Shown here in pieces: positions 1-56,728 of a stretch of DNA of 64,000 nt (position 1 is its first letter; each line of letters opens with the position of its first letter). The stretch spans positions 1-64,000 of the forward strand of contig JAUXZS010000061.1 in assembly GCA_030692515.1 (NCBI GenBank), read 5' to 3'. Origin of the DNA: Bacteroidota bacterium. GTDB taxonomy: Bacteria > Bacteroidota > Bacteroidia > B-17B0 > Aurantibacillaceae. Below the pieces are notes generated by a model that did not search any database, was not told the origin of the DNA, and saw nothing but the letters and a program-made list of their open reading frames with translations. Made by a program: the position numbers and the translations under genes.

Positions 1-929
1 AGCTTGTGTGAGGATGATTTTCGCCTCTCGCGTAGCGCTTAAATCATCAGATTGAAGAATAAAGATTTTTAGCAAAATTTTAAGAAGCCTTGACTTTTAT
101 TCAACTTTTTGTCAAGAAAAAGTTGAGACGAAAAGAAAAAATTAGTCTTTTTAAATTCCTACGCAGAATTACAAATTCTGCGTAGCGATATGTTGTTCTA
201 TCTTCTCCCATTTGGGGAGATAAGAGAGGGGCTTTTAGTAAACGTTTTGTTATAAGCTGTTAGCTCATATAGTTTATCGGCCTTTTAAAATTTTGCGTTA
301 GAAAATCTTTATATTTCAAAAGCGTTGGCTTGTGTGAAGATGATTTGGCTGTTCGCGTAGCGCTTAAATCATCAGCTTGATGGATAAAGATTTTTAGCAA
401 AATTTTAAGAAGCCTTGACTTTTGTTCAACTTTTTGTCAAGAAAAAGTTGAGACGAAAAGAAAAAATTAGTTTTTTTAAATTCCTACGCAGAATTACAAA
501 TTCTGCGCAGCGAATAAAAGAATCTACATTCTCCTCCTCTGCCCTACGGGCACCCCCTCAAAGAGGAGGATAAACTGTGTTTATTTAAATGAAGTAAACC
601 CAGCATAACGGCCTTTTAAAATTTAGCGTTAAAAAATCTTTATGCTTCAAAAGCGTTGGCTAAGTGTCTTTGTTTTAAAGCTGTCATCCCGAGGCACGAG
701 GGATCTAAATACAGATTCCTCCTTTGGTCGGAATGACAATTCGGTAAGCGTTAGTAAACGTTTTGTTATAAGCCGTTAGCACACATTGTGTCTCCCTCTT
801 GAGGGAGTGGCTGAAAGCCGAGGGAGGATTTTCGCTTTAGCAAAATGAAGATTCATGTACTTTTCCTCCTCCGCCCTACGGGCACCTCCTCCAAGAGGAG
901 GATAAGCTTTGTTTGCTTACGCGGAGCAA
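1..929. repeat. Gene-free array of interlocking intergenic repeats
   Basis: I see no credible gene here. A unit of about 185 bp at 2-188 recurs at 328-513 with few differences. Each copy contains three consecutive hairpins: GATGATTT with AAATCATC, TCAACTTTTT with AAAAAGTTGA, and CTACGCAGAATT with AATTCTGCG(T/C)AG (159-185 and 483-509). Other pieces also recur: about 52 bp at 278-330 and 609-661; 28 bp at 237-264 and 753-780; and a CCTCCTC...GAGGAGG hairpin around a ccctacgggcac loop at 531-573 and 863-904. A gtcatcccga-type hairpin lies at 683-737. The region sits downstream of infC, where rpmI and rplT are usually found. Confidence 0.8.
683..737. repeat. gtcatcccga hairpin repeat, copy 1
   Basis: The sequence starts gtcatcccga and ends tcggaatgac, an imperfect inverted repeat around a gagggatct...gattcctcct core. 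The same family occurs at 18622-18670 and 18734-18788, so it is a dispersed intergenic element, about 50 bp long, that can fold in either strand. Confidence 0.75.
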
Positions 930-961
930 AACAAAAAAAGCAAACCTTTCAGTTTGCTTTT
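929..961 (-). terminator. Intrinsic terminator of the thrS-infC operon
   Basis: AAAAGCAAAC at 936-945 pairs with GTTTGCTTTT at 952-961 around a 6-nt loop. On the minus strand the stem is followed by a T-rich run. It lies 22 nt after the infC stop, so transcription appears to end here rather than continue to rpmI-rplT. Confidence 0.8.
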
Positions 962-983
962 CAATTATATAAGTTATTGTTTT

Positions 984-1619
984 TTATTTTTTTCTTGGCC
1001 CAATAAGCATTTGCATTTTTTTACCCTCTAAAACTGGTAATTGCTCTGCCTTACCCCACTCTTCTAATTCATTTGCAAAACGTAATAACAAAATCTCTCC
1101 TTGTACTTTAAATACAATTTCTCTTCCTCTAAAAAAAACATAAGCTTTAACTTTACAACCTTCTTGTAAAAATTTAATCGCATGATTTTTTTTGAAATTA
1201 AAATCGTGATCATCAGTATGCGGACCAAAACGAATATCCTTAATAACAATTTTAGCAGCTTTAGCTTTTATTTCTTTAGCTTTCTTTTTTTGTTCGTAAA
1301 GGAATTTACCGTAATCAACAATTTTACAAACTGGCGGATCAATGTTCGGTGCAATCTCAACTAAATCTAAGCCTTCAGCTTTAGCCATAGCTAACGCTTC
1401 GGCTATAGGGTAAACACCAGCTTCAATGCCATCACCAACCACACGAACCATTTTTGCGTAAATTCTTTCGTTGATTTTGTGTTGCTCCTCTTTTACTCCG
1501 GGTCTTTTAAATCCAGCTTTTAACCCTCTAGGTTGCTTAAATACTGGCTTTGCTGCTCCACTTGCCGGTGTTGATGCCGTTGTTGCAGGTTTTATAAAGT
1601 TTGGTTTTTTGTTATTGAT
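984..1619 (-). CDS. infC: Translation initiation factor IF-3, probable AUC start
   Basis: IF-3 binds the 30S subunit and checks the start codon and initiator tRNA. The C-terminal two-thirds (from VRVVGDG to IGPRKK) is classic IF-3 with the [12 protein letters not shown] linker region. The first ATG in frame (1451) is too late: the conserved segment [15 protein letters not shown] begins 9 codons upstream of it and the frame stays open back to a TAA at 1635-1637. None of these codons is ATG, GTG, TTG or CTG. A strong SD (GGAGG, 1625-1629) sits 5 nt before an ATC codon at 1617-1619, which I take as the start, giving 211 aa with a basic, Ala/Pro-rich N-terminal extension. A rare AUU start is established for E. 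coli infC, where IF-3 represses its own synthesis. The gene follows thrS by 57 nt. The family call is certain; the start is inferred. Confidence 0.92.
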
Positions 1620-1624
1620 AGATT

Positions 1625-1629
1625 CCTCC
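1625..1629 (-). promoter_or_regulatory. Strong Shine-Dalgarno GGAGG of infC
   Basis: GGAGG on the minus strand, 5 nt before the inferred AUC start of infC. SD sequences are rare in Bacteroidota and I saw none at neighbouring thrS, alaS or rpsU, so this site helps decide the infC start. Confidence 0.65.
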
Positions 1630-1676
1630 GCTTTTTATTGTTATTATTTATTGTTACAAATTTAAGAATTTATAAT

Positions 1677-3626
1677 TTAAGAACTCAGTTTTTGATTAAA
1701 ATCATTTTCAATTATCTGATTTACATATTTCACAAAATCATCAACCGAAAATTCGCCAACATCGCCTTTACCGTGCGCTCTCAATGCTACCTTTTGTTCT
1801 GCCTCTTCCTTTTCTCCAACAATCAACATAAAAGGTACTTTTTTAACTTCGTTATCTCTGATTTTTTTTCCAATAGTTTCGTTTCTATCATCTAAAAAGC
1901 CTCTTAAATCCCTTGCTGTTAGGGCATCTAATACTTTTTGAGCGTAAGCATTATACTTTTCGCTTAAAGGTAAAATAGCAAACTGATCGGGCGTTAACCA
2001 AAGTGGGAAATTACCAGCGCAATGCTCAATTAAAACCGCTATAAAGCGTTCTAAACTGCCAAATGGCGCACGATGTATCATTACAGGACGGTGCTTTTGA
2101 TTATCACTTCCTGTATACTCTAATTCAAAACGCTCTGGTAAATTATAATCTACTTGAATTGTGCCTAATTGCCATTTTCTTCCAATTGCATCCTTAACCA
2201 TAAAGTCAAGCTTTGGTCCGTAAAATGCAGCTTCGCCTAATTCAACAACAGTTTTTAATCCTTTTTCTGCAGATGACTCTATAATTGCTTGTTCAGCCAA
2301 TTTCCAGTTTTCATCGCTGCCAATATATTTTGTTTTGTTATCGGGGTCTCTTAAAGAAATTTGTGCCGTGTAATCTTTAAAATCTAAAGCGTTAAACACA
2401 TACAAAACCAAATCAATTACCTTAATAAATTCTTCTTTCACTTGGTCAGGACGAACAAATAAATGCGCATCATCCTGTGTAAATCCACGCACGCGCGTTA
2501 AACCATGCAACTCTCCTTTTTGTTCGTAACGATAAACTGTTCCAAACTCAGCATAACGCACCGGCAAATCTTTATATGATTTTGGCGACGATTTATAAAT
2601 TTCGCAGTGATGCGGACAATTCATTGGTTTTAAGAAAAACTCTTCGCCTTCGTGAGGAGTTTTAATAGGCTGAAAAGAATCTGCTCCATATTTTTCGTAA
2701 TGACCAGAACAAACGTATAAATCTTTTAATGCGATGTGTGGCGTAACAACCGGTAAATAACCGGCTTTAGTTTGTGCTTTTTGCATAAACTGTATTAGAC
2801 GCTCACGCAACATAGCACCTTTAGGCAACCATAATGGTAAACCCATACCTACTTTTTCCGAAAAAGTAAATAATTCTAATTCCTTACCAAGTTTACGGTG
2901 ATCGCGTTTTTTAGCCTCTTCTAATAAAACTAAATATTCTTTTAATTCTTTATCTTTTGGAAAAGCAATACCATAAATGCGGGTAAGCATTTTGTTTTTT
3001 TCGTCACCCTTCCAATAAGCTCCTGCAATATTTAAAACCTTGGCGGCCTTAATAAATCCAGTGCTTGGAATGTGCGGTCCACGACACAAATCAGTAAAAT
3101 TACCCTGAGTGTAAAGAGTAATGTTACCATCTTCTAAACGCTCTAATAAATCTAATTTGTAATTATCATTTTTATCAGTAAAATATTTTATGGCATCTGC
3201 TTTAGATATTTCTTTTCTTACAAAAACATTATTTTGTCTCGCCAACTCTAACATCTTTTGCTCAATTTTTTCAAAATCGGCAGGCGTTAAAACTTGACCA
3301 TCCAAATCAACATCATAATAAAAACCATTTTCTAACGGTGGTCCAACCCAAAATTTTATTCCAGGATAAAGTGCTTCAAGCGCTTCGGCCATAATATGTG
3401 CAGATGAATGCCAAAGAGTTTCTTTTCCTAAATCATCGTTCCAGGTTAAAAGACTTAATGTGGAATCTGAATTAATTGGGCGGGTTGCATCCCAAACCTC
3501 GTTATTAATTTTTGCGGCTAATACGTTTCTGGCTAAGCCTTCGCTAATACTTTTAGCAACGTCCATTGATGTTGTTCCTTTTTCGTATTCACGAACCGAA
3601 CCATCGGGGAGAGTAATTTTTATCAT
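1677..3626 (-). CDS. thrS: Threonyl-tRNA synthetase
   Basis: Charges tRNA-Thr in the cytoplasm and edits mischarged Ser-tRNA. The 649-aa length is normal. Domains in order are TGS (about 1-62), the editing domain with HSSAH (H73, H77) and the later TDLCRGPH box, the class II catalytic core, and a C-terminal anticodon-binding domain (about 545-645). The catalytic core shows [10 protein letters not shown] (zinc Cys), [18 protein letters not shown] (motif 2) and [11 protein letters not shown] (motif 3). It heads the thrS-infC transcript. A promoter-like pair at 3671-3701 and a small leader hairpin precede it. No SD is present. Confidence 0.97.
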
Positions 3627-3637
3627 AATTTTTATTT

Positions 3638-3656
3638 ACCTGCAAACAACGCAGGT
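3638..3656 (-). other. Hairpin in the thrS leader
   Basis: ACCTGC / GCAGGT form a 6-bp stem with a 7-nt loop, ending 12 nt before the thrS ATG. It could affect translation of thrS, but nothing identifies it as a known leader element. Confidence 0.4.
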
Positions 3657-3670
3657 TTATTTTTCGAGAG

Positions 3671-3701
3671 TAAAGATAGCATTTATTATTACTGAAATCA
3701 A
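3671..3701 (-). promoter_or_regulatory. Predicted promoter of thrS-infC
   Basis: On the minus strand TTG (3699-3701), a 20-nt spacer and TATCTTTA (3671-3678) match the Bacteroidota -33 TTG / -7 TAnnTTTG pattern with one mismatch. This gives a leader of about 40 nt. Confidence 0.5.
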
Positions 3702-3750
3702 GCGCTTAAAATAGAAAAATTTCGTGTTCTCATCAAAAATTTATTTATAA

Positions 3751-3957
3751 TTTGGGCGCCTTAACGGGCTGCTACAGGCTCCGCTTCGCTCCGGTTTTTT
3801 GCCTTAACAGGCAAAAGAACTAAACCTTTTGCAGCCCTGGCGCAAACTCTCGAAATTTGTACGCGATTTTGCGTTAGCGATTGCAGTGAAAATCCTTTTT
3901 GGGAGGCACGAACAAAAAGATTGTAACAAAAAGCGCGGGCCGAAGGCAACGCCCAAA
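3751..3957. repeat. GC-rich intergenic element with inverted ends
   Basis: The gene-free gap 3627-4080 contains this 207-bp segment, clearly more GC-rich than its surroundings. It opens with TTTGGGCG and closes with CGCCCAAA. Inside are a ggctccgcttcgctcc self-complementary patch and a TTTGCC...GGCAAA hairpin. From general familiarity, similar TTTGGGCG-bounded elements occur between genes in other Bacteroidota genomes; a search would be needed to prove it. An 83-codon minus-strand frame across it looks non-coding. Confidence 0.65.
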
Positions 3958-4080
3958 TAAAAAAGAAGTTGTTATAGAAAATCGTGAAACGACTAACAAT
4001 TATTAACACCAATAAAATAATATGCTAATAAAACAATCGTCTATTGAATCTATAAATTACTATTTTTACTTTTTACACTT

Positions 4081-55178: not shown

Positions 55179-55475
55179 TTATCCTTTAATTTTTTCTTTG
55201 TATTTGAGAATTTGACTTCTCAGTGCTTCACAGGTTTGGTCAGTAGCCTCTTCAAAACTAGCACACTGTTTCTTCGCAAAAAACTCATGCCCCGCACTAA
55301 CCATTCTTATTTCTGCAACTTTGTTTTCGCTGTTGTCGTTCTTATCTAACTTAAGAGTTACTTCGCTATTAATAATTCCATCATAATACTTATTTAATTT
55401 TTCTACTTTTTCATTTACAAAGTCAAGTAATTTTCTGTCTGCATCAAAGTGCACTGATTGGATGTTGATTGTCAT
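55179..55475 (-). CDS. hpf: Short ribosome hibernation-promoting factor
   Basis: 98-aa single-domain HPF/RaiA. It shows the N-terminal strand MTINIQSVHFDADRKLLDFV, the helix EKVEKLNKYYDGI and the basic KKQCASFEEATDQTCEALRSQILKYK. It binds 30S in the channel for mRNA and tRNA and stops idle ribosomes. It lacks the long C-terminal dimerisation domain. A strong SD (AGGAGG) precedes the start by 9 nt, rare in this genome. Last gene of rpsU-xerC-hpf. Confidence 0.93.
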   Translation of the reverse strand: MTINIQSVHFDADRKLLDFVNEKVEKLNKYYDGIINSEVTLKLDKNDNSENKVAEIRMVSAGHEFFAKKQCASFEEATDQTCEALRSQILKYKEKIKG

Positions 55476-56666: not shown

Positions 56667-56696
56667 CTTATAATCTGTTTTTTAATTTAAGAGCCG

Positions 56697-56728
56697 CAAA
56701 TATAGGGAACATTTTAGATATTCTCAAA
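56697..56728 (-). promoter_or_regulatory. Consensus promoter of rpsU-xerC-hpf
   Basis: On the minus strand TTTG (56725-56728), a 20-nt spacer and a perfect TATATTTG (56697-56704); this is the best promoter match in the window. The ATG is 30 nt downstream. Confidence 0.7.

What the first reader, a model, noticed from the sequence alone, without database searches (positions are those of the whole stretch)
984..1640. infC appears to start at AUC behind a strong SD
The conserved IF-3 segment [15 protein letters not shown] extends upstream of the only ATG (1451). The frame is open to a TAA at 1635-1637 with no ATG, GTG, TTG or CTG, and GGAGG (1625-1629) sits 5 nt before ATC at 1617-1619. In E. coli IF-3 autoregulates through an AUU start; this looks like the same logic in a phylum that rarely uses SDs.
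Basis: partly seen in the sequence, partly recalled or inferred. Interest (0 to 1): 0.62.

Follow-up and report, generated by a model that had tools for sequence, protein, structure and literature searches.

The report
IF3 gene starting at AUC
The gene for a protein that polices start codons itself appears to begin at a non-standard start codon (AUC) placed by a ribosome-binding sequence that this bacterium otherwise hardly uses; relatives show that the arrangement is conserved, and it probably lets the protein limit its own production.

Summary
The infC frame (minus strand) is open from the TAA at 1637-1635 with no ATG, GTG, TTG or CTG before ATG 1451, and GGAGG (1629-1625) stands 5 nt before ATC (1619-1617). 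It is not chance: all 35 complete congener infC genes keep GGAGG 4-5 nt before ATC (25) or ATT (10), while the spacer above varies. The Met at 1451 occurs in 1 of 35. Of 188 distinct Bacteroidia/named infC loci read, 103 have a strong SD and all 103 have AUC, AUU or AUA (AUH) behind it; none pairs that SD with ATG, GTG or TTG. Elsewhere in this genome SDs are near background (7 of 926 ORFs sampled); rpsU and rpsR, often SD-bearing in Bacteroidia, lack one in this genus. Best reading: IF3 is made from AUC and limits its own synthesis as in E. coli; the SD is what lets a weak codon work. Anatomy and conservation are shown; feedback and SD pairing are inferred. AUH starts of infC are a known kind; the tie to an SD in a clade whose ribosomes hide the anti-SD looks new.

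The parts
984..1619 (-). infC coding sequence read from the AUC start (211 codons; IF-3)
   Evidence: TIGR00168 and Pfam IF3_N/IF3_C; only IF3_N match in the genome
1617..1619 (-). ATC, proposed initiation codon
   Evidence: ATC in 25 and ATT in 10 of 35 congeners, never ATG
1625..1629 (-). GGAGG, proposed Shine-Dalgarno sequence, 5 nt before ATC
   Evidence: kept in 35 of 35 congeners with gap 5 (32) or 4 (3); three congener genomes have 16S tail ...CACCTCCTTTCT
1630..1635 (-). conserved A-rich stretch and C just above the SD (AAAAGC); the C at -11 does not extend pairing with the 16S tail; role unknown
   Evidence: A at -15 to -13 in 35 of 35, C at -11 in 32 of 35
1635..1637 (-). in-frame TAA that bounds the open frame above the start
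1449..1451 (-). first in-frame ATG; judged an internal Met codon
   Evidence: Met at this column in 1 of 35 congeners; lies 8 residues inside the IF3_N match
1657..1664 (-). TAAATTTG, a possible Bacteroidetes -7 promoter element (consensus TAnnTTTG recalled) above infC
   Evidence: TAnnTTTG at -75 to -20 in 14 of 35 congeners against 0.61 expected from shuffles
1677..3626 (-). thrS, upstream neighbour (57 nt gap to ATC)
   Evidence: TIGR00418, 706.9 bits; thrS upstream in 35 of 35 congeners
935..962 (-). terminator-like hairpin after infC
   Evidence: 1 found, 0.5 expected

Best explanation
IF3 is translated from AUC at 1619-1617. The GGAGG 5 nt upstream pairs with the 16S tail and places the AUC in the P site, making up for the poor codon. 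Shown here: the frame, the codon, the SD, their conservation, the lack of another usable start, and the association of SD with AUH starts. Inferred: that the SD pairs in vivo, that AUC is decoded by initiator tRNA, and that IF3 closes the loop (by analogy with E. coli and Streptomyces).
For: 35 of 35 complete congener genes keep GGAGG and AUC/AUU. The rival ATG is a Met in 1 of 35. Codons just above it differ mainly at third positions (2460, 1897 and 7674 differences at positions 1, 2, 3, summed over all pairs). TTG, ATA and ATC stand in front of the same peptide in L132, L160 and L135, which fits an initiator and not an Ile codon. Of 188 distinct Bacteroidia/named loci, 103 have an SD and 103 of those have AUH; NTG with SD 0. 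E. coli infC has the same layout. Leader unstructured. PMC5472188 (passages) states IF3 feedback through ATT in E. coli and names ATC for Streptomyces; PMC13009471 (passages) reports initiation at an AUA of infC with an extended SD in Staphylococcus aureus.
Against: No expression, proteomic or profiling data. SD pairing energy alone is not outstanding in this genome (11 of 923 ORFs and 9 of 923 mock windows reach it). PMC9976891 reports that Bacteroidia ribosomes hide the anti-SD; infC's SD (-9.5 kcal/mol here, ViennaRNA) is well below the -14 to -21 given there for rpsU by another program. Twelve of 188 loci have neither SD nor NTG, so an AUH start can persist without an SD. The phylogeny-aware test is modest (median p 0.0625). 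Several C-domain residues of E. coli IF3 recalled as important differ (R99 G, R112 N, R116 K, R129 F, R168 K).
Confidence: 0.8

Rival explanations
1. Translation begins at ATG 1451 and gives a 155-residue IF3; the upstream frame is untranslated.
For: It is the first ATG in the frame, and a mechanical ORF caller starts there.
Against: Met at this column in 1 of 35 congeners; the start would cut the IF3_N match; the codons above it are conserved as coding sequence.
Confidence: 0.03
2. Two inputs: AUC reports IF3, and the SD reports 30S subunits whose anti-SD is free (bS21 missing or displaced), so infC is made when subunits are immature or damaged.
For: bS21 of this genome keeps Tyr54, which PMC9976891 links to holding the 16S tail, and that paper shows bS21-poor ribosomes favour strong SDs; hpf also keeps an SD in this genus (20 of 21).
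Against: No data on bS21-poor ribosomes here; rpsU itself has no SD in 24 of 24 congener loci; the infC SD is weaker than the extended SDs said to be needed for that effect (PMC9976891, section 34 part 1).
Confidence: 0.2
3. infC is translated by reinitiation of ribosomes that finish thrS, and the SD only helps them restart.
For: thrS lies directly upstream in 35 of 35 congeners, 57 nt away in the window.
Against: The spacer differs in sequence among congeners and holds a possible promoter element in 14 of 35, so infC may have its own transcript.
Confidence: 0.06
4. The conserved AAARCGGAGG box is mainly a binding site for a regulator and not an SD.
For: Conservation goes beyond the SD core: A at -15 to -13 in 35 of 35 and C at -11 in 32 of 35, and that C breaks longer pairing with the 16S tail.
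Against: In other families the same place has plain SDs (AGGAGG, AAGGAGG, AAAGGAGG) without that C, at gaps 4-9; no Rfam family there; no stable fold.
Confidence: 0.05

Closest known systems
Escherichia coli infC (AUU start with IF3 feedback)
   Same: IF3 gene after thrS, GGAGG upstream, non-NUG AUH codon
   Different: AUU and 8-nt gap there, AUC and 5-nt gap here; E. coli ribosomes use SDs widely; E. coli has rpmI-rplT after infC, this genus does not (0 of 31)
Streptomyces infC (ATC start) and Staphylococcus aureus infC (AUA start, extended SD)
   Same: AUH start of infC, as stated in PMC5472188 and PMC13009471, passages seen
   Different: those phyla use SDs; here SDs are near background
rpsU with extended SD in Flavobacteriales (bS21 autoregulation)
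   Same: a strong SD on a translation gene in a class that otherwise avoids SDs (PMC9976891: passages, section 32, part 1 of section 34)
   Different: rpsU there has 9-13 bp of pairing (PMC9976891) and ATG; infC here has a GGAGG core and AUC; rpsU in this genus has no SD core in 24 of 24

Membership tests
IF3-autoregulated infC with an AUH start | gene encodes IF3 | tested here: met
   TIGR00168 above cut-off, IF3_N and IF3_C
IF3-autoregulated infC with an AUH start | initiation codon AUU, AUC or AUA, with no NTG that could serve | tested here: met
   sequence and 35 of 35 congeners; by comparison, not by protein data
IF3-autoregulated infC with an AUH start | SD at a usable distance | tested here: met
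   GGAGG, 5 nt; E. coli GGAGG, 8 nt
IF3-autoregulated infC with an AUH start | expression falls when IF3 rises, and AUG abolishes this | not testable with these tools
   needs reporter fusions
IF3-autoregulated infC with an AUH start | IF3 residues that discriminate start codons are present | tested here: inconclusive
   aligned with E. coli: Y70, Y75, K110, R131, R133, R147 kept; R99, R112, R116, R129, R168 differ; the roles of these residues are recalled
bS21-type SD autoregulation (rpsU) | SD on rpsU itself | tested here: not met
   no GGAG or GAGG 3-14 nt before the rpsU ATG in 24 of 24 congener loci; L253 has AGGA only
bS21-type SD autoregulation (rpsU) | translation rises on ribosomes without bS21 | not testable with these tools
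   needs bS21 depletion

The most novel reading that the evidence does not exclude
In this clade infC is a two-input sensor: AUC reports free IF3 and the SD reports 30S subunits whose anti-SD is exposed. With hpf, the hibernation-factor gene, which also keeps a strong SD in this genus (20 of 21 loci) although SDs are otherwise near background, it would form a small SD regulon through which these Bacteroidia balance initiating, free and hibernating ribosomes. The exclusive SD-AUH tie (103 of 103) would then be the signature of one conserved circuit.
Probability: 0.2. Interest if true: 0.8.

Novelty: new member of a known kind. Interest (0 to 1): 0.55.

Why it matters
PMC9976891 (section 32) concludes that SD control in Flavobacteriales is limited to rpsU, and in the sections I read it names only ribosomal protein genes for other Bacteroidia; infC occurs 0 times in its main text. 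Here a strong SD on infC recurs in 20 of 48 sampled Bacteroidia families outside the window's own, each time before a non-NTG codon, where a scan that starts from annotated NTG codons would miss it. If it works as proposed, infC is a natural probe of whether ribosomes that hide their anti-SD can still read an SD, and one reason why the anti-SD is kept.

Tried and rejected
Start at ATG 1451: rejected. Sequencing error in one genome: rejected by the congeners. Leader hairpin: z-scores -0.14, 0.93 and 0.53. Known RNA element: the only Rfam match in 800-4000 is Flavo-1 at 3866-3944, outside infC. E. coli-type sigma-70 promoter: none found. Ranking the SD by pairing energy inside one genome: not decisive. 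My first start-calling rule let AAGGA count as an SD and miscalled L031 and L129 (which gave 105 of 105); one search uses a stricter rule (GGAG or GAGG needed) and gives the counts reported. That rule counts L160 as NTG because of a GTG further inside, so AUH starts without SD may be undercounted. Sampling bias: the 80 named loci were the best matches to the query; families of the class were fetched only where one search listed a match row, and that listing was cut; 48 of the 67 other family codes were sampled. The hpf survey of the class is rough: of 30 loci 9 were not located, and of 21 located (one, L374, clearly misframed) 10 have an SD.

Literature: ten searches listed no paper that I could recognise from title and start of abstract as treating AUH starts of infC in Bacteroidota. 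Most subscription papers are not held. An arXiv paper on genes preferring non-AUG starts in bacteria (2008.10758), seen only as a title in the references of PMC9845219, may include infC. Jha et al. 2021 (doi 10.1093/nar/gkaa1195) was not held and is used only as described in PMC9976891 and PMC8710568.

Full report
WHAT IS THERE. On the minus strand the infC frame runs from a TAA at 1637-1635 to a stop codon ending at 984. GGAGG at 1629-1625 is followed after 5 nt by ATC at 1619-1617; no ATG, GTG, TTG or CTG occurs in frame before ATG 1451-1449. The product read from ATC is IF-3 (TIGR00168; IF3_N from residue 49, and IF3_C) and is the only IF3_N match in the genome. thrS ends 57 nt upstream; a terminator-like hairpin follows at 962-935.

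IS IT CHANCE. One search found 37 IF3_N matches in 36 of 40 genomes of the genus. I dropped one cut by its contig (L030) and one divergent second copy with an ATG start in G027 (L017; the other copy of G027, L202, has the usual form). All 35 others have GGAGG 5 nt (32) or 4 nt (3) before ATC (25) or ATT (10). In the start-anchored alignment the GGAGG columns hold 1.58-2.0 bits, the first two start-codon columns 2.0, and the columns from -60 to -17 hold 0.92 or less. The Met at 1451 is found in 1 of 35; the others have Q 15, T 8, K 5, R 3, S 2, N 1. The 25 codons above it differ mainly at third positions (2460, 1897 and 7674 differences at positions 1, 2 and 3, summed over all pairs, which are not independent). 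The first 20 columns after the start are a looser linker (2070, 1662, 2892).

BACKGROUND IN THIS GENOME. In 1.196 Mb (81 stretches, about 28%; and the window), GGAGG stands 4-12 nt before the first ATG in 7 of 926 ORFs, against 1-4 in four mock windows, and infC is the only one of 973 ORFs with GGAGG + AUH and no nearby NTG. Gene starts were taken mechanically. Mean pairing energy before first ATGs (-0.96) is weaker than in mock windows (-1.94), so SDs look avoided; but 11 of 923 ORFs, and 9 of 923 mock windows, pair at least as well as infC, so energy alone would not single it out. rpsU has no GGAG or GAGG core 3-14 nt before its ATG in 24 of 24 congener loci (one, L253, has AGGA) and rpsR none in 22 of 22, although these often carry SDs in other Bacteroidia (PMC9976891). 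The 16S tail of three congeners is GGAACACCTCCTTTCT; no 16S was found in the window's own assembly. bS21 of this genome has Tyr54, the residue that PMC9976891 describes as redirecting the 16S tail.

ACROSS THE PHYLUM. I classified 233 infC loci, 215 distinct after dropping L017, L030 and duplicates. Of 188 in Bacteroidia or named records, 103 have an SD (at least 5 contiguous matches including GGAG or GAGG, gap 4-9) and all 103 have AUH behind it (ATA 37, ATC 36, ATT 30); 73 have NTG and no SD; 12 have neither; NTG with SD 0. By family outside the window's own: 48 sampled, 20 with AUH+SD, 0 with NTG+SD, 21 with only NTG and no SD, 6 with neither, 1 mixed without SD. The gap is 5 in 61, 8 in 25, and 4, 7 or 9 in 17. 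On a ThrRS+IF3 tree of 162 rows the SD changes 17 times and AUH 18 times; of 9 independent pairs on supported branches, on average 4.8 go the same way, 0 the other way and 4.2 do not differ (median p 0.0625): consistent in direction, modest in strength. Of 27 distinct loci from other classes, 15 are AUH+SD, 5 have neither and 7 have NTG without SD. TTG-GCA-ATA-AGA-AGA (L132), ATA-GCA-ATA-AGA-AGA (L160) and ATC-GCT-ATA-AGA-AGA (L135) at the same place are best explained if the first codon is an initiator.

HOW IT PROBABLY WORKS. In E. coli the same layout (GGAGG, 8 nt, ATT) lets IF3 repress its own synthesis by rejecting the non-NUG codon; PMC5472188 (passages) states this and gives ATC for Streptomyces. 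The simplest reading is the same loop here. The leader folds no better than shuffles, so the SD is not masked by RNA structure. Of the upstream A determinants reported for F. johnsoniae (-3, -6, -12, -13; PMC9976891 passage), this gene has T at -3 and G at -6; in the genus A is at -3 in 22 of 35 and at -6 in 0 of 35, the latter because the SD ends there. So the SD, not the usual context, is the conserved guide. How a GGAGG works when the anti-SD is held by bS21, bS18 and bS6 is open: either it pairs well enough on normal subunits, or infC favours subunits whose tail is free. The second would link IF3 supply to the state of the 30S subunit and, with the SD of hpf (20 of 21 loci of the genus), make a small SD regulon. 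That is the novel case, at 0.2.

WHAT IS KNOWN. AUH starts of infC are known in E. coli, Yersinia (PMC3091656, passages), Streptomyces and Staphylococcus aureus (PMC13009471, passages). SD use in Bacteroidia is described for rpsU, rpsR and some other ribosomal protein genes (PMC9976891, section 32). I saw no report that joins the two (ten searches, listed under Tried and rejected; main texts of PMC9976891, PMC8710568 and PMC6847099 have 0 occurrences of infC).

VERDICT. A new member of a known kind, of moderate to good interest because of the setting.

Noticed in passing
window 55179-55475, minus strand: hpf/raiA-like gene (98 aa; PF02482 match) with a strong SD (AGGAGG before ATG). 20 of 21 loci of the genus in which it was found (of 24 searched) keep AGGAGG or GGAGG there; L245 is the exception. 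In a rough class survey 10 of 21 located genes have one.
   Followed up: partly
window about 56690-56704, minus strand (rpsU leader): rpsU has no SD, but just after a TATATTTG -7-like element its leader has a conserved C-rich CUC element: CCTC or CTCC in 18 of 24 congener leaders, against 29 of 1961 TAnnTTTG sites in the genome sample. It resembles the anti-SD; a stable-RNA type discriminator is the plainer reading, since similar sites stand before a tRNA-like stretch and near a contig end.
   Followed up: partly
downstream of infC, window 1-984; L366 3742-4376: rpmI-rplT, which follow infC in E. coli and in many sampled families, are absent after infC in 31 of 31 congener loci with at least 600 nt read; in this genome they lie elsewhere (L366, contig C20).
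   Followed up: partly
L017 (genome G027, contig C87): A second, divergent IF3 gene with an ATG start beside the usual one (L202); possibly contamination of that assembly.
   Followed up: no
window 1630-1635, minus strand: Conserved AAA and C directly above the GGAGG in the genus; the C prevents longer pairing with the 16S tail and has no explanation yet.
   Followed up: no
window 3866-3944, plus strand: Flavo-1 RNA, 47.9 bits (gathering 42), between thrS and the signal peptidase-like gene.
   Followed up: no
window from 5876, plus strand: Signal peptidase-like open frame of 300 codons whose first ATG/GTG/TTG is at codon 48, with a hydrophobic segment above it; its start is unclear.
   Followed up: no
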